Part shown: positions 13,101 through 21,933 of the stretch, piece after piece
Layout of the letters: each line of letters opens with the position of its first letter
Position numbering within the stretch: position 1 is the stretch's first letter
Origin: Candidatus Peregrinibacteria bacterium CG10_big_fil_rev_8_21_14_0_10_55_24
GTDB taxonomy: Bacteria > Patescibacteriota > Gracilibacteria > Peribacterales > Peribacteraceae
DNA length: 54,292 nucleotides
Direction of reading: 5' to 3'
Assembly (NCBI GenBank): GCA_002772745.1
Contig: PFDV01000004.1
Coordinates: 25,708-79,999 of the forward strand
The notes under the pieces: generated by a model
Databases searched by the model: none
What the model was told of the DNA's origin: nothing
What the model saw: the letters and a program-made list of their open reading frames with translations, nothing else
Position numbers and translations under genes: made by a program

Positions 13101-15845
13101 ATGGAGTGGAGTGCATTTAAAGACAGTATCCGGCACTTGTCACCCGCTGACCAGGAACGTGTCAGGAAAGCGTTTGAAATGGCGAAAGATGCACACAGAG
13201 GACAACAACGTAAATCGGGCGAGCCGTATTTTATCCATGCCGTTGCAGTCGCCCATCTTCTCATCGACATGGGCGCTGATGCGGACACGATCATCGCAGC
13301 GCTCCTGCATGACACCGTGGAAGATACTCCACTGACGTTAGCCATGATTGCAAAAGAGCTGGATGGAGAAGTTGCAAGCCTCATCAATGGCGTAACCAAG
13401 TTGGATGCAAGTAAATTGGAAGGGCATCCCACGCTGGAACAGGAAATCGAAACACTCAGAAAAATATTCACCACCATGCAGCAGGACGTTCGCATCATGG
13501 TGATCAAGCTTGCCGACCGCATGCACAACATGAAGACCATTGAGCACCTCAAGCCGGAGCGCCAGCTATCGCTCACGCAGGAAACCCAGACCGTATTCGT
13601 CAAAATTGCAGATCGTTTGAGCATGCGGGATTTTCGCGATGCACTGGAGGAGCTTTGCCTTGGCATCCTGGAGCCAGATCTCCTCAAGAAGCTCGTACGG
13701 TTACGTGGGGAAAATGAAAAGAACGGGAAAAAGGTGATAGAAACCATTTCTCATACACTTACGAAATCTCACCCCACACTTGCAAAGAAGTGCACCCTGC
13801 ACTACGAAACAAAATCTTGGGGAAGACTCCGGGCACAGCTGGAGGCGGAAGGAACTGCCGTGACGGGAGTCACCTCCCTTACCGTCGCGTTCTCCTGCAA
13901 AGATGTTGCCACCTGTTACGAAGTTTTCGGCGCGCTCCACCAGCAATGGCAGCGAGAAACACTCTCCTTTGAAGACTTCATCAATTCCCCCATGATCAAC
14001 GGATACCAGGGGCTGCACACCACCATCATCACCGAGAACGGCATACGCATACGGTGCAAGATACGCACGGAGGCAATGGACAGATACGCCCATAAGGGAA
14101 TCACCACAAAGTGCTTCGATAGTGAAGCGGCCGGAATTCTGGATTACCTCCCCTGGACGCGGCGCATTGCCACGTTGTCCGCAGACACAGCGGACCAAAG
14201 CGAACAGTTCTGGGCAAGCCTGCAGAGCGATATCTTGGGTGATTCCATCACTGTGCACGGCCCCAATGATAAGACGATTACATTGCCGAAAGGTTCTACA
14301 GCACTGGATGGAGCGTTGTACCTCTTTGCCGAGAAGGCGCTGGGTGTCACTTCCATCAGTATCGACGGGAAGGAGGTGTCATTCTTCGCTCCTCTTGAGC
14401 ACGCCGCATCTCTCGACATGACCATAGTGAACACACCCCAGGTGAAGTTGGAATGGTTGGAATGGGTCAACACCGGGTATGCCACAGCGATGATTCGCGA
14501 AGCGTTGGCATCTGGTTCGCGTCAGAAGCGGGCAGCTATAGGCAAACAACTACTACAGAAAGCGATGACAAAGCAGGGATTGGGGTATCTCAAGGAGTTT
14601 AAGGAAGACCAGTTCCTTACGGGACTTCGCGCCTTGGGGTACGCCAAATTCGACGCAGCGCTCGTTGCCATTGCCGAAGGTCGTCTGAAACCTTCTTCGG
14701 CCATTGCTGCGATGCTGTACACCAGAGAAGGTAAGAAGGCAGCCAAGCCGACAAAGCAGCCTTGCATGGTGACGTTCACGCTCTCCGCTCTGTCCCTCCA
14801 CGACGTGGCCGACCGGTTCTCCTTCGTCACGCAGAAGTACGGCATTACACTCTCGAACATTCAACTTGCTCCCGTAGGAGATGGGCGCACGAAGATCGTC
14901 ATACATACATTGCTGTCCCCTGAGGAGGAACAAACGATCATCAACGAATTGAGTGCAGCGGACGCCACTGCAGCAGAAATTTCCGTTACGCCGCGCACAT
15001 CCGTATTTCACTTGCTCTCCGGTCTATTCCTCGTTCTGTTCCTCTGGGGATTGGACCCGGTATTCGCACGATTCCTCATCTCGCAACATCACCTTACACC
15101 CGTTGACTTCACTCTTCTGCGTTTCTGGTCCCTCGCAATAGCGCTTTCGGTCGTGACGATGCTCAGCCGACGCCGCAAGCTCCTGCAGCCCGTACGCATT
15201 GGCAACCCTCTCCTCTGGCTCTCTTCGGTGCTCCTCACGCTCATCGCACTGACGACCTACGCCGCTCTCGAACAGGGAACAGCTACGCACTACGAAATTC
15301 TGATGACGACGAGCGTACTCCTGATCGCGACCGCTGCCGGCACCCTCTCATCGAGAAAGAAGCTCATTCTATGGACGCTCTTCGGCAGCACGCTCCTCCT
15401 GCTCAGGAATTCTACGGCCTGGAATCCGCAGAGCAGCCTCTTCACTCTCCTCTCGCTCGTTTGCTTTTCCGCATTCCTCGCCGTGAGCGGCCGCTACTTA
15501 CGACAAGAGCACATTGCACGGCGGCGGCTGGAGTATTACACGGCCATGCTCATCATCAGTTCCATTCTCACACTCCCCCTCCTCGTCTACGCATCCGAGC
15601 TGATCTACGATCCTTTGGTCGTTCTCCAAGTTACCCTCTTCAGTACCTTCTTCATCGGTCTTCCATATTACCTGTACTACGAATGGGCTCCACGCCAGGA
15701 GATGGGATCTATTATTCCCTTTGCCTACGTCATGCTCACCGTGACATTCGTCGGAGAGTTGCTCCTTACGCATGAATTCGACGAATACACGCTCTTGGCT
15801 TTCGGTGCCATGACTGCCGTCTCGTACTTCACGGAAAAGCGGTAG
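13101..15845 (+). CDS. SpoT/Rel-like alarmone hydrolase fused to a multi-pass (EamA-like) membrane domain
   Basis: 914 residues. The HD hydrolase (about 20-200) keeps the residues needed to degrade (p)ppGpp: RKSGEPYFIH (37-46), HDTVEDT (70-76) and KLADRMHNMKT (136-146). The synthetase region (about 235-325) still shows MINGYQGLHTT and KIRTEAM. Its two catalytic acids appear lost: the Asp before the fifth strand aligns to Ser259 and the Glu of the EIQIRT motif to Arg318. A TGS domain follows (381-445), then a helical segment and an ACT-like region (555-630). From 634 to 912 the chain has about nine or ten hydrophobic segments resembling a DMT/EamA transporter. Standard Rel/SpoT proteins end at the ACT domain. 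The prediction is a membrane-bound, hydrolase-only enzyme; transport is unproven. Confidence 0.85.
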   Translation: MEWSAFKDSIRHLSPADQERVRKAFEMAKDAHRGQQRKSGEPYFIHAVAVAHLLIDMGADADTIIAALLHDTVEDTPLTLAMIAKELDGEVASLINGVTKLDASKLEGHPTLEQEIETLRKIFTTMQQDVRIMVIKLADRMHNMKTIEHLKPERQLSLTQETQTVFVKIADRLSMRDFRDALEELCLGILEPDLLKKLVRLRGENEKNGKKVIETISHTLTKSHPTLAKKCTLHYETKSWGRLRAQLEAEGTAVTGVTSLTVAFSCKDVATCYEVFGALHQQWQRETLSFEDFINSPMINGYQGLHTTIITENGIRIRCKIRTEAMDRYAHKGITTKCFDSEAAGILDYLPWTRRIATLSADTADQSEQFWASLQSDILGDSITVHGPNDKTITLPKGSTALDGALYLFAEKALGVTSISIDGKEVSFFAPLEHAASLDMTIVNTPQVKLEWLEWVNTGYATAMIREALASGSRQKRAAIGKQLLQKAMTKQGLGYLKEFKEDQFLTGLRALGYAKFDAALVAIAEGRLKPSSAIAAMLYTREGKKAAKPTKQPCMVTFTLSALSLHDVADRFSFVTQKYGITLSNIQLAPVGDGRTKIVIHTLLSPEEEQTIINELSAADATAAEISVTPRTSVFHLLSGLFLVLFLWGLDPVFARFLISQHHLTPVDFTLLRFWSLAIALSVVTMLSRRRKLLQPVRIGNPLLWLSSVLLTLIALTTYAALEQGTATHYEILMTTSVLLIATAAGTLSSRKKLILWTLFGSTLLLLRNSTAWNPQSSLFTLLSLVCFSAFLAVSGRYLRQEHIARRRLEYYTAMLIISSILTLPLLVYASELIYDPLVVLQVTLFSTFFIGLPYYLYYEWAPRQEMGSIIPFAYVMLTVTFVGELLLTHEFDEYTLLAFGAMTAVSYFTEKR

Positions 15846-17443: not shown

Positions 17444-17550
17444 TGCACTCCTATTTTCGGTTTTTTGGTTCCTGCTGTCAACGAACATGCGTCAGTATTT
17501 CGCCTGCAATATCTGCACATTGGTTAGTGATATGAACCGGAAATTTGCGC

Positions 17551-17556
17551 TACACT
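17551..17556 (+). promoter_or_regulatory. -10 box TACACT of ileS
   Basis: TACACT ends 6 nt before ATG 17563 and selects it over the in-frame ATG at 17545. No T-box leader is possible in such a short upstream region. Confidence 0.5.
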
Positions 17557-17562
17557 ACGCTT

Positions 17563-20500
17563 ATGTTCGACCCCGTGGACCCCAAGCAGGCGTTGCCCTC
17601 CGTGGAGGAAGGCATCCTCCAGTACTGGCGGGAGGAAGACATTTTCCGCCGCTCGGTAAAGGAGCGCCCAACGGAAGGGAGTTTTAGCTTCTATGATGGC
17701 CCGCCCTTCGCAACGGGGCTCCCTCACTACGGGCACCTTTTGGCAGGAACGATCAAAGATGTGATCCCCCGTTACCAGACCATGCGCGGCAAGCGGGTGG
17801 AACGCCGATTCGGATGGGATTGTCATGGACTCCCCGTGGAGAACCTGATTGAGAAGGAGGAAGGCATAGAGAGTCACCAGCAAATCCGCACCATGGGCAT
17901 CGCCGCGTTCAATGAACTCTGTTGCGGCTCGGTGCAGCGTTTTACCAAAGAATGGCGACAGGTGGTGGAGCGCATGGGCCGATGGGTGGATATGGACTGG
18001 GACTACCGCACCATGGACCCCACGTACATGGAATCCATCTGGTGGGTGTTTGGCGAACTCTGGAAGAAAGGACTCATTGAGGAGGGACACAAGCCCATGC
18101 ACGTCTGCCCTCGTTGCGTGACGCCGCTCTCGAACTTCGAAGTGACCCAGGGGTACAAGGAGGTCACGGACCAGTCGGTGACAGCGAAGTTCGCGTTGAA
18201 GGGAGAAGCGTCTCCCACCTACCTACTCGCATGGACTACGACGCCCTGGACGCTGCCGGGAAACTTGTTTCTGGCCGTGGATCCGAAGATGGATTACGTG
18301 AAGTTTCAGTTCCAACCCCACAATGAATCGGAGGCTTCGTTGTACATCACATCACTTGCTCACTATCAACACCTGCTCCATGAAAACGTTTCTTTTGGAC
18401 ACACAATCCCACCCGGAGGCGAATATCGTGAAGGGGATCAATCCAAGTATTGGATACAGAGCCTAGACGAAGCACGACAGTACAAAGGAAAAGACCTCAT
18501 CGGAAAGCGCTACACTCCCCTCTTCCCTTACTTTGCGGAAAAATACCCTACAGCCTTCCGCATCGTCGGCGCGGACTTCGTGACGAGTGATGAGGGTACG
18601 GGTGTCGTGCACATCGCTCCGGGGTTCGGCGAGGACGACTACAACCTTGGCAAGCGCGAAGGCGTCGAGGTGCTGCAGCACGTGACCATGGAGGGTCGCT
18701 TCGTGGATGAGGTGAGCGATTTTGCCGGAGAAGAGGTCAAGCCGATCGACGATCCAAGCAAAATGGATCGCAGGGTGGTGGAATGGCTGGAGAAACGGGG
18801 ACTTGTCTTCGCCAAGGAAACGTACCGCCACAGTTACCCGCACTGTTGGCGTTGCGATTCTCCGCTCCTCAACTACGCCACATCCTCATGGTTCGTGAAG
18901 GTGGAGAAGATCAAGGAAGATCTCCTCAAGGCGAATGCGGAAACGGAGTGGGTCCCCGCCCACGTGCGCGACGGACGATTTGGCAAATGGCTGGAGGGAG
19001 CGCGTGACTGGGCGGTTTCCCGCAATCGCTTCTGGGGAACCCCTCTGCCCATCTGGCGGTGCCAGGAAACCGGCGACATCGAAGTAATCGCAAGCCGCGA
19101 CGACCTGATGCGCCACCAGCCGATCCGCTTTACCAAAGTCACAACGATCCGACACGGCGAAAGCGAAGGAAACCTGATCCCCATCTACCAGGGGGAAACT
19201 CCGGGAACCGATCTGACACCCAAGGGGAAGAAGCAGGCAAAGGAGGCGGGAAAGAAGCTCTCCTCACAGAACGTCGACGTAATCTACTGCTCACCGCTTG
19301 CACGCACGCAGCAGACGGCCGCAGTCATCGCCAAGCAGACGGGGGCACAGGTGATTGTGGATGATCGTCTGCGCGAGGTCAGCTTCGGTGAATTCGAGGG
19401 GAAAACCGTGGATTTCTCGGACCTGTCGCTGGTGAAAGCGCGTCGCGCACATAAGCTCCAGACCGGTCAGCCCGAATCGATTTACCACTTCCCCGGCATG
19501 GAGCGTTGGAGCGATGTCCAGGAGCGCATCGGAAGTTTCCTTATGGAAATCCTGCCCAGGCACCGTTCGGAGCACGTGCTCATTGTGACACATGCGGATC
19601 CCATACAGAACATCCACCACTTTTTCACGGGGGAAGATCCGCTCAAGATTTCGCATCAGCCCTACCCTCATCTTGCACAATCGCGCACGTACTTCTGGGA
19701 TCACAGAACACGCACGCAACTCGACCTGCATAAGCACATCGTTGATGAGATCACGTGGCCGGCGTCGCACTCCAAAGAGAGTGTTGATGTCCTCGTCGTG
19801 CGCCATGGACAGACCGATTGGAATGCTCAACTTAAGATCCAAGGGAAAAAGGATATGGGGCTGAACGCAACCGGCAAGGAACAGGCATTGGAACTCGCGA
19901 AGAAGCTCAAGAAGGAACGATTCGATGTCGTTGTTTCTTCAACACTCAAACGATCGATAGAGACTGCGCAGATTCTCTCGGAGCAGCTCCACCTTCCCTA
20001 CGAGGAACGCTGGAGTGAGTTCTGTGAAAGGGACTTCGGCGACTGGGAGGGCAAAACCCGCCAAGAAGTCGCCCCCGATTCCAAGGGGCAAATTGCCATT
20101 CAGGACCTTTCGATTCCAAACGGCGAGACGCTCAGCGCATTCCTCGTTCGTCTGGAAGAGGGCCAACGCAGGCTCGGGCAAACGTTTGCCGGTAAGCGTG
20201 TTCTCCTTGTAACGCACGGAGGCGTACTCAAAGCGCTTGACGCACTCAATGGATTAGCCACATTCCGCGAGGTGCGCGACACCTTTGTGGAAAATACCCA
20301 GACACTCGCGCTCAAGCTGGGACCGCAGATGCAGCGCGTCAGCGAAGTCTTCGATTGCTGGTTTGAATCAGGTTCCATGCCCTACGCACAGCCGCACTTC
20401 CCCTTCGAATCGCAGGAGAAGACCCCACCCGGTTTCCCCGCGGACTTCATCGCGGAGGGGATGGACCAAACGCGCGGGTGGTTTTACACCTTGATGGTGC

Positions 20501-21933
20501 TCTCCACTGCGCTCTACGGGGAACCCGCGTTCAAGCACTGTGTTGTCAACGGCATCGTGCTCGCCGAGGACGGCAAGAAAATGAGCAAGCGCTTGAAGAA
20601 TTATCCGGAACCCATGGAGCTTACCAAGCAGTACGGAGCCGATGCCGTGCGCTTTACACTGATGAGCTCCCCTGCCGTGCGCGGAGAGGATCTGCGGTTC
20701 TCCGCCCGCATGGTGGAAGAAACAATGCGCTCGGTGATGTTGCCGTTGTGGAATGCATACAGCTTCTTTGTAACCTACGCGAATGCTGCGAAATTCGAGC
20801 CCGTGGAAACACGGCGACATTCCTCGCACCCCCTGGATCAGTGGATCCGCACCGAAGTGCAGGACCTTGCCAATCGCATGACTGAAGAGCTCGACCGTTA
20901 CGAACTCTCCTTCGCGTGCGCAGAACTCCACGACACCATCGACGCACTCACCAACTGGTACATCCGACTCTCGCGCCGGCGCTTTGCGGGGCGGACCCCC
21001 GTTGAAGACGTGGACGCGAGTGCGGCCTCCCCCTTTGAGGGCATCGAGGAAGAGGACCAGCTCGATGCGCTCCACACGCTCTACGACGTGCTCCTTACGA
21101 TGAGCCAACTCCTGGCTCCGTTCTGCCCGTTTGTTACCGATGCCATCTACCTCAATCTTGTCTCTGAGAATCACGGATCCGTGCATCTCACCGACTGGCC
21201 GCTCCCCAGAGCGCTCTCCAAGGACGAGCAGTCGCTCCTCCAGAAAACCCGCCTGATGCGGCAGATCGTAACGCTTGGGCACCGCGTGCGCGGCGAGCAG
21301 AAGGTCAAGGTGCGCCAACCGCTCGCAAAAGCCATGATTGCCGTTCCCCCCGTGTTACGCAACATTGAGCTCTCCGCTCAGGATCGCGAGCTTCTCACGC
21401 AGGAACTCAACGTGAAGGAGCTCATCTTCACGCAGGATCCCGGCAAACTTGCGGATGTGATAGCGCGCGTTGACGCGCGTGCCGTGGGCCCGCGACTCGG
21501 CGGGCGCGTGCAGGAAGTGATTGCAGCAGGCAAACGCGGTGATTTTTCGGTGGAGGAAGACGGCACGGTGCTCATCCTCGACGAGCGCCTGTCGCCCGAA
21601 GAAGTACAAATCGCCTACCAGGGGAAGGAGGGGACGAATGTCGCGGCAGACCATGGTGTGGTGGTCAGCCTGGATACGGAAATTTCTCCGGAGCTCAAAA
21701 TCGAAGGGAACGCCCGCGATTTGATCCGTGGAATCCAGCGCTTGCGCAAGGAAGCGGGGCTCGCCTTTACGGATCGCATCGCATTGAGTATCGCAGGTGC
21801 CGATGAGGTACTCGCCGTACACGGCGACCTGATCGTTCAGGAAACACGTGCAACCCTGGAGAAGAATGACGGAGCAGAGCAGACCATCGATCTTAATGGA
21901 CACAAGGTGACGATCCGCTTCGAGAAACGCTAA
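17563..21933 (+). CDS. ileS: Isoleucyl-tRNA synthetase with two inserted histidine-phosphatase domains
   Basis: 1456 residues against about 1050 for eukaryote-like (type 2) IleRS. Synthetase landmarks: PHYGH (HIGH motif, 54-58), editing domain with TTTPWTLPGN, GTPLPIWRC, VFDCWFESGSMPYAQ, and KMSKR (1006-1010). Between GTPLPIW and DCWFESG are two domains of the histidine-phosphatase (phosphoglycerate mutase-like) fold. The first (about 523-715) has TIRHGESEGN (His531) and IVTHADP (His677). The second (about 740-918) has VVRHGQTDWN (His748) and LVTHGG (His885). Between them the IleRS segment LHKHIVDEITWP is kept, so these are two separate insertions; the second falls where many IleRS have a zinc ribbon. 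Both phosphatases keep their catalytic histidines. The frame is continuous. Confidence 0.95.
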   Translation: MFDPVDPKQALPSVEEGILQYWREEDIFRRSVKERPTEGSFSFYDGPPFATGLPHYGHLLAGTIKDVIPRYQTMRGKRVERRFGWDCHGLPVENLIEKEEGIESHQQIRTMGIAAFNELCCGSVQRFTKEWRQVVERMGRWVDMDWDYRTMDPTYMESIWWVFGELWKKGLIEEGHKPMHVCPRCVTPLSNFEVTQGYKEVTDQSVTAKFALKGEASPTYLLAWTTTPWTLPGNLFLAVDPKMDYVKFQFQPHNESEASLYITSLAHYQHLLHENVSFGHTIPPGGEYREGDQSKYWIQSLDEARQYKGKDLIGKRYTPLFPYFAEKYPTAFRIVGADFVTSDEGTGVVHIAPGFGEDDYNLGKREGVEVLQHVTMEGRFVDEVSDFAGEEVKPIDDPSKMDRRVVEWLEKRGLVFAKETYRHSYPHCWRCDSPLLNYATSSWFVKVEKIKEDLLKANAETEWVPAHVRDGRFGKWLEGARDWAVSRNRFWGTPLPIWRCQETGDIEVIASRDDLMRHQPIRFTKVTTIRHGESEGNLIPIYQGETPGTDLTPKGKKQAKEAGKKLSSQNVDVIYCSPLARTQQTAAVIAKQTGAQVIVDDRLREVSFGEFEGKTVDFSDLSLVKARRAHKLQTGQPESIYHFPGMERWSDVQERIGSFLMEILPRHRSEHVLIVTHADPIQNIHHFFTGEDPLKISHQPYPHLAQSRTYFWDHRTRTQLDLHKHIVDEITWPASHSKESVDVLVVRHGQTDWNAQLKIQGKKDMGLNATGKEQALELAKKLKKERFDVVVSSTLKRSIETAQILSEQLHLPYEERWSEFCERDFGDWEGKTRQEVAPDSKGQIAIQDLSIPNGETLSAFLVRLEEGQRRLGQTFAGKRVLLVTHGGVLKALDALNGLATFREVRDTFVENTQTLALKLGPQMQRVSEVFDCWFESGSMPYAQPHFPFESQEKTPPGFPADFIAEGMDQTRGWFYTLMVLSTALYGEPAFKHCVVNGIVLAEDGKKMSKRLKNYPEPMELTKQYGADAVRFTLMSSPAVRGEDLRFSARMVEETMRSVMLPLWNAYSFFVTYANAAKFEPVETRRHSSHPLDQWIRTEVQDLANRMTEELDRYELSFACAELHDTIDALTNWYIRLSRRRFAGRTPVEDVDASAASPFEGIEEEDQLDALHTLYDVLLTMSQLLAPFCPFVTDAIYLNLVSENHGSVHLTDWPLPRALSKDEQSLLQKTRLMRQIVTLGHRVRGEQKVKVRQPLAKAMIAVPPVLRNIELSAQDRELLTQELNVKELIFTQDPGKLADVIARVDARAVGPRLGGRVQEVIAAGKRGDFSVEEDGTVLILDERLSPEEVQIAYQGKEGTNVAADHGVVVSLDTEISPELKIEGNARDLIRGIQRLRKEAGLAFTDRIALSIAGADEVLAVHGDLIVQETRATLEKNDGAEQTIDLNGHKVTIRFEKR

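What the first reader, a model, noticed from the sequence alone, without database searches (positions are those of the whole stretch)
19129..20320. Two independent histidine-phosphatase domains inserted in isoleucyl-tRNA synthetase
The IleRS frame is unbroken, yet between GTPLPIW and DCWFESG lie two phosphoglycerate-mutase-like domains, each with an intact RHG site and a second catalytic His. The IleRS strand LHKHIVDEITWP is kept between them, so they entered at two sites, the second replacing the zinc-ribbon segment. Phosphatase activity attached to tRNA charging could act on a charging by-product, an alarmone or the tRNA end.
Basis: partly seen in the sequence, partly recalled or inferred. 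Interest (0 to 1): 0.85.

Follow-up and report, generated by a model that had tools for sequence, protein, structure and literature searches.

The report
Phosphatase enzymes nested inside isoleucyl-tRNA synthetase
In a group of tiny, mostly uncultured bacteria, the essential enzyme that loads isoleucine onto tRNA carries one to three complete phosphatase enzymes built in frame into its surface loops, and related phosphatases sit inside other essential enzymes of the same bacteria, so an enzyme domain appears to have been copied repeatedly from one essential protein to another.

Summary
Window 17563-21933 (+) is one open frame for a full isoleucyl-tRNA synthetase (IleRS) with two branch-1 histidine-phosphatase (HP) domains in the zinc-ribbon (CP2) region. 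Both active sites are intact. It is the genome's only IleRS, and its only two HP domains are these. It is no assembly artefact: the same gene recurs in dozens of Candidatus Peribacteria assemblies, and single-domain versions occur across Patescibacteria (HP-IleRS in 16 of 117 sampled genomes). Sister HPs sit in ValRS (1-3 copies), one AlaRS and one UvrB. The embedded HPs group apart from standalone phosphatases. The AlaRS copy falls inside the ValRS copies; the UvrB copy is sister to the IleRS copy of the same genome. Domain 1 entered a zinc-ribbon loop; domain 2 sits where the second zinc knuckle was, but the zinc cysteines were probably lost first. The five catalytic residues are conserved almost without exception, so catalysis is selected. 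The substrate is unknown; the genome has its own mutase-family enzyme and pyrophosphatase. Best reading: active passenger phosphatases nested in essential hosts and copied between them; a role in charging chemistry is possible but unproven. No description was found in the open literature searched.

The parts
17563..21933 (+). Isoleucyl-tRNA synthetase (type 2-like) with two nested histidine phosphatase domains; open frame from TTG 17545, likely start ATG 17563 (1456 aa)
17725..17736 (+). HxGH (HYGH) motif of the class I synthetase active site
18229..18642 (+). CP1 editing domain motifs (TTTPWTLPGN ... GTGVVHIAPGFGEDDY), intact
   Evidence: the model matches solved IleRS editing domains, Z 25.4
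19036..19062 (+). GTPLPIWRC: start of the CP2 zinc ribbon; only one cysteine of the first knuckle remains (WRCQETGD)
19126..19722 (+). Histidine phosphatase domain 1 (site A, zinc-ribbon loop); RHG 19150-19158, Arg in SPLAR, Glu in LREVSFGE, His in VTHADP
19723..19761 (+). Retained IleRS strand DLHKHIVDEITWP between the two inserts
19774..20325 (+). Histidine phosphatase domain 2 (site B, place of the lost second zinc knuckle); RHG 19801-19809, His in VTHGGV 20209-20226
20332..20373 (+). IleRS resumes: QRVSEVFDCWFESG
20578..20592 (+). KMSKR motif

Best explanation
Shown: a complete editing-type IleRS carries two HP domains with intact catalytic residues in its CP2 zinc-ribbon region, as one polypeptide. 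It belongs to a family of nested HPs found mainly in IleRS and ValRS of Patescibacteria. Inferred: each nested HP is an autonomous, active phosphomonoesterase (phospho-histidine mechanism) that sits on a surface loop of an essential, constitutively made host enzyme and works as a passenger. It hydrolyses small phosphorylated metabolites or nucleotides, largely independently of charging; the host supplies expression and protection from loss in a streamlined genome. The family has spread by repeated in-frame copying into insertion-tolerant loops of the same and other hosts (IleRS site A, site B and two further IleRS sites, ValRS CP2, AlaRS, UvrB). The exact substrate is not determined.
For: Catalytic R/H/R/E/H kept in essentially all 93 first and 54 later IleRS-embedded domains; exceptions are mostly truncated rows. 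Domain 1 evolves as slowly as the synthetase core (64.2% against 65.0% mean identity to the window; domain 2 39.9%). The window genome has no other PF00300 domain. In the 117-genome sample, genomes with a fused HP lack a standalone one more often (12/18 against 33/99, Fisher p 0.016, not corrected for kinship). Embedded HPs as one clade fit better than the free tree found (AU p 0.88). The AlaRS copy lies inside the ValRS copies (99), and the UvrB copy of G042 is sister to the IleRS copy of G042 (99). Other enzymes are nested in the same hosts: GNAT, NUDIX and a Y1 transposase domain in IleRS, a serine hydrolase beside the HP in UvrB. The AF2 model keeps the IleRS fold (Z 35.6 to yeast IleRS, 652 residues) beside confident HP folds (Z 23.7 to PspA).
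Against: Apart from one UvrB and one AlaRS, every HP-bearing frame over 600 aa that was checked is IleRS or ValRS (20 matches in the phylum sample; 28 of 29 further frames in the class sample). That bias hints at a link with these two editing synthetases rather than a random host. Two or three copies in one enzyme are hard to explain for a mere passenger. The p 0.016 is weak and not corrected for shared ancestry. No activity is measured.
Confidence: 0.45

Rival explanations
1. Cis-acting clean-up: the phosphatase acts on a nucleotide made at or near the synthetase, such as AMP, an ApnA product or a nucleotide antibiotic, possibly with NUDIX in enzymes that have both.
For: Strong bias to IleRS and ValRS, at the CP2 position near the active site. 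NUDIX and HP occur together in some IleRS (L058, L061). Mycobacterial MutT1 joins NUDIX and HP and acts on diadenosine polyphosphates (PMC11784022), although there the HP domain's own activity is unknown.
Against: The same family is in UvrB. The nearest solved relatives are phosphoserine phosphatase PspA and broad-range PhoE. Apart from the IleRS strand itself, no residue beyond the general HP set is invariant in divergent site-A domains. The window protein itself has no NUDIX.
Confidence: 0.22
2. Regulatory or sensor role: binding or hydrolysis of a phosphorylated metabolite in HP moves CP2 and so tunes charging or editing.
For: Inserts are within CP2. Domain 1 evolves at the rate of the core. 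A RelA/SpoT-type gene lies just upstream.
Against: HP also occurs at loops far from CP2 in sequence, such as after KMSKS, in AlaRS and in UvrB. No direct evidence.
Confidence: 0.15
3. Structural replacement: the HP folds substitute for the lost zinc ribbon as a scaffold, and catalysis is incidental.
For: In the window's family the zinc cysteines are gone and HP stands in their place.
Against: The catalytic residues are almost invariant. L040 carries HP at site A with all four cysteines kept, so the insert does not need zinc loss.
Confidence: 0.1
4. The domain supplies a missing metabolic enzyme (phosphoglycerate mutase or pyrophosphatase).
For: The only PF00300 domains of the genome are here; soluble pyrophosphatase PF00719 is absent.
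Against: The window genome has a 512-aa metalloenzyme-family (PF01676) protein of the size of cofactor-independent mutase and a membrane pyrophosphatase.
Confidence: 0.04
5. Assembly chimera or pseudogene.
For: None for the window; a few relatives have broken frames (L118, L147).
Against: Same architecture in dozens of independent assemblies, including single-contig genomes G027 and G029.
Confidence: 0.01

Closest known systems
NCBIfam NF040702 ileS_w_GNAT (IleRS with N-acetyltransferase domain)
   Same: An enzyme domain nested within IleRS; GNAT is also found nested in IleRS of this class (L046, L047)
   Different: Different enzyme; the window protein scores 266 bits against a cut-off of 1999
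Mycoplasma penetrans MetRS with appended aminotransferase (PMC7694997)
   Same: Reduced-genome bacterium; a catalytic domain on an aaRS, shown there to feed the aaRS its amino acid
   Different: Appended at the N-terminus, not nested; one host; different chemistry
Mycobacterial MutT1 (NUDIX + RHG histidine phosphatase; PMC11784022)
   Same: HP domain joined to a nucleotide-processing domain
   Different: Not within a synthetase; no NUDIX in the window protein
PspA phosphoserine phosphatase (4ij5, 4ij6) and PhoE (1h2e)
   Same: Same HP branch-1 fold and catalytic residues; nearest solved structures
   Different: Free-standing enzymes; substrate specificity cannot be transferred at this similarity
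Inteins
   Same: In-frame insertions in essential genes, at several sites and hosts
   Different: No Hint or splicing domain found; the insert is a catalytic phosphatase expected to remain in the protein

Membership tests
Isoleucyl-tRNA synthetase (TIGR00392) | Score above the curated cut-off | tested here: met
   837 against 621 bits
Isoleucyl-tRNA synthetase (TIGR00392) | HxGH and KMSKS-type motifs and CP1 editing motifs | tested here: met
   HYGH, KMSKR, TTTPWTLP, GTG..HIAP; model superposes on solved IleRS
CP2 zinc ribbon seen in many relatives (a sub-feature, not needed for IleRS membership) | Two CxxC knuckles | tested here: not met
   WRCQETGD and no second knuckle; also absent in the window's family members shown there
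Histidine phosphatase superfamily branch 1 (PF00300) | Profile match above gathering score in both domains | tested here: met
   146.0 and 140.4 bits, cut-off 21.7
Histidine phosphatase superfamily branch 1 (PF00300) | RHG, second Arg, acidic residue, second His | tested here: met
Histidine phosphatase superfamily branch 1 (PF00300) | Phosphatase activity | not testable with these tools
   needs an assay
Phosphoserine phosphatase PspA or archaeal-type dPGM, as a specific function | Curated equivalog cut-off | tested here: not met
   PspA 164 of 350; dPGM_arch 145 of 225
Alpha-ribazole phosphatase CobC (TIGR03162) | Curated equivalog cut-off | tested here: inconclusive
   197 against 162.9 bits, but the score comes from two stretches, i.e. 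both domains
Intein | Hint/splicing domain | tested here: not met
   no such domain in the Pfam scan
ileS_w_GNAT | GNAT domain nested in IleRS | tested here: not met
   no GNAT in the window protein

The most novel reading that the evidence does not exclude
A catalytic protein domain that behaves like an itinerant insert: one nested-phosphatase lineage of Patescibacteria has been copied in frame between loops and between essential genes (IleRS to a second IleRS site, to ValRS with up to three tandem copies, from ValRS to AlaRS, from IleRS to UvrB), without splicing out, alongside other nested enzymes (NUDIX, GNAT, Y1 transposase domain, serine hydrolase).
Probability: 0.35. Interest if true: 0.88.

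Novelty: new variant of a known kind. Interest (0 to 1): 0.72.

Why it matters
Synthetases with appended enzymes are known one at a time. Here one enzyme family is nested, often in several copies, inside two or more editing synthetases across a whole bacterial radiation, with its catalytic residues strictly kept. It gives a natural series (none, one, two or three domains; zinc kept or lost) for testing whether a nested enzyme works with its host or only rides on it. It also raises a testable question about how domains are copied in frame between essential genes in reduced genomes, and makes automatic gene names in these genomes easy to misread.

Tried and rejected
Missing phosphoglycerate mutase: rejected for this genome, PF01676 protein present. 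Missing pyrophosphatase: PF00719 and PF02833 absent but membrane PPase present. Chimera: rejected by recurrence. Random decay: rejected by catalytic conservation. Exclusively aaRS host: rejected by a UvrB case. Recent tandem duplication of domain 1 as the origin of domain 2: only 32 of 93 aligned columns identical; a common family-specific origin is not excluded. Whether HP in IleRS was gained once or often: the IleRS core tree needs 16 changes, at least 11 forced by well-supported branches, while the HP tree tends to one embedded clade; vertical loss against lateral spread is not settled. Orientation of the HP active sites towards the synthetase site could not be measured (no coordinates or PAE returned). 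Nine literature searches gave no description of HP in IleRS; only open-licence PMC papers were covered.

Full report
WHAT IS THERE. The + strand frame 17545-21933 (likely start ATG 17563, 1456 aa) encodes an isoleucyl-tRNA synthetase (TIGR00392, 837 bits, cut-off 621) with HYGH, KMSKR and intact editing motifs. Between GTPLPIWRC and DCWFESG it holds two Pfam His_Phos_1 domains (146.0 and 140.4 bits, cut-off 21.7) separated by the retained IleRS strand DLHKHIVDEITWP. The genome (1.29 Mb, 98.8% complete) has no second IleRS and no other PF00300 domain.

WHERE EXACTLY. In a relative without an insert at these sites (L047) the segment reads GTPIPAWRCEKCGEIHVISSRAELENLTGKEVPDLHKHFVDELVFGCEKCDGKMRRIPEVLDCWFESG, a two-knuckle zinc ribbon. 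Site A is the loop before DLHKH; site B is the second knuckle. L040 has a phosphatase at site A with all four cysteines kept. One-domain members of the window's family have already lost the second knuckle (TITWKDRDGRTFRRIP), so zinc loss probably preceded insert 2; secondary loss of domain 2 in those members is not excluded.

HOW WIDESPREAD. A scan of one genome per species found the gene throughout Candidatus Peribacteria: of 43 loci with the region complete, 35 have two domains, 7 have one and 1 has three (my count). Single domains at site A occur in other Patescibacteria, including Parcubacteria, Paceibacterota, Zambryskibacteria and Nomurabacteria (L150-L156, L158, L174, L175). In an even draw of 117 Patescibacteria genomes, 16 have HP in IleRS and two more only in ValRS. 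In the class, HP also sits at two other IleRS loops, in ValRS CP2 (one to three copies), in one AlaRS (L092) and in one UvrB (L329). Among 29 further long HP-bearing frames of the class, 18 are IleRS, 10 ValRS and 1 UvrB.

OTHER NESTED ENZYMES. GNAT (L046, L047), NUDIX (L058, L061) and a Y1 transposase domain (L054) are nested in IleRS, and a serine hydrolase next to the HP in UvrB. These loops therefore accept a variety of inserts.

SELECTION ON CATALYSIS. The catalytic R, H, R, E and second H are kept in essentially every IleRS-embedded domain (93 first, 54 later). Across 16 divergent site-A domains these five are among the few invariant residues. Domain 1 is as conserved as the N-terminal synthetase core (64.2% against 65.0%); domain 2 is less so (39.9%). 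ValRS copies are looser: 2 of 9 lack the second His.

HISTORY. In the HP tree the embedded domains fall largely apart from standalone ones; holding them together gives a better likelihood than the free search found (AU p 0.88), which means one embedded clade is not rejected, not that it is proven. The AlaRS copy falls inside ValRS copies (99) and the UvrB copy of G042 is sister to the IleRS copy of G042 (99, FastTree). On the IleRS core tree presence of HP needs 16 changes, at least 11 forced. This fits copying between hosts together with frequent loss; the balance is not settled. Domain 2 as a copy of domain 1 within the family is not excluded (AU p 0.588).

STRUCTURE. AlphaFold2 on residues 6-1095 with 43 sequences gave pLDDT 83.9 and pTM 0.82, with most HP blocks near or above 90 apart from the cap of domain 1. 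The IleRS body aligns to yeast IleRS:tRNA (8wnd, Z 35.6, 652 residues, 2.8 A, 43% identity), the HP part to PspA (4ij6, Z 23.7). Domain orientation was not assessed.

FUNCTION. Active phosphatase: inferred with high confidence from the conserved residues. Substrate: unknown. A missing phosphoglycerate mutase or pyrophosphatase is not the reason. Genomes with a fused HP more often lack a standalone HP (12/18 against 33/99, p 0.016 uncorrected), which fits a passenger that does a general phosphatase's job. The strong bias to IleRS and ValRS keeps a cis role in charging or in clean-up of its by-products alive.

NOVELTY. Nine searches of open-licence papers found no description. The nearest known cases are ileS_w_GNAT, the M. 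penetrans MetRS-aminotransferase (PMC7694997) and mycobacterial MutT1 (PMC11784022).

Noticed in passing
window 13101-15845 (+): RelA/SpoT-type protein (HD_4, RelA_SpoT, RelA_AH_RIS) whose C-terminus looks like an EamA-type membrane transporter (below Pfam cut-off, E 4e-4), in one open frame.
   Followed up: partly
L329:2061-5435 (G042): UvrB with a histidine phosphatase and a serine hydrolase nested between TIYVSATPGHYEL and QQIIRPTGLLDP; its HP is sister to the IleRS HP of the same genome.
   Followed up: partly
L092:292-3471 (G058): Alanyl-tRNA synthetase (class II) with a nested histidine phosphatase related to those of ValRS.
   Followed up: partly
L066 (G058), L064 (G040): ValRS with three and two tandem nested HP domains; the first of the three has lost its second catalytic His (VIGNSQ).
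   Followed up: partly
L054:1823-5755 (G041): IleRS with a Y1 (IS200-like) transposase domain nested in the editing-domain region.
   Followed up: no
L315 (G078): IleRS whose site-A loop holds a short insert that looks repeat-derived (SVIASGAKQSPASKTEARNV...), with other low-complexity stretches elsewhere in the same gene.
   Followed up: no
L313, L314 (G085, G102): About 122 extra residues near CP2 and about 100 in the editing region of IleRS, without a Pfam match.
   Followed up: no
L102, L146: Peribacteria-like IleRS on contigs titled Kiritimatiellales and Lloydbacteria; probably binning contamination.
   Followed up: no
L118, L147: Peribacteria IleRS genes with broken frames in the HP region; assembly error or decay not distinguished.
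   Followed up: no
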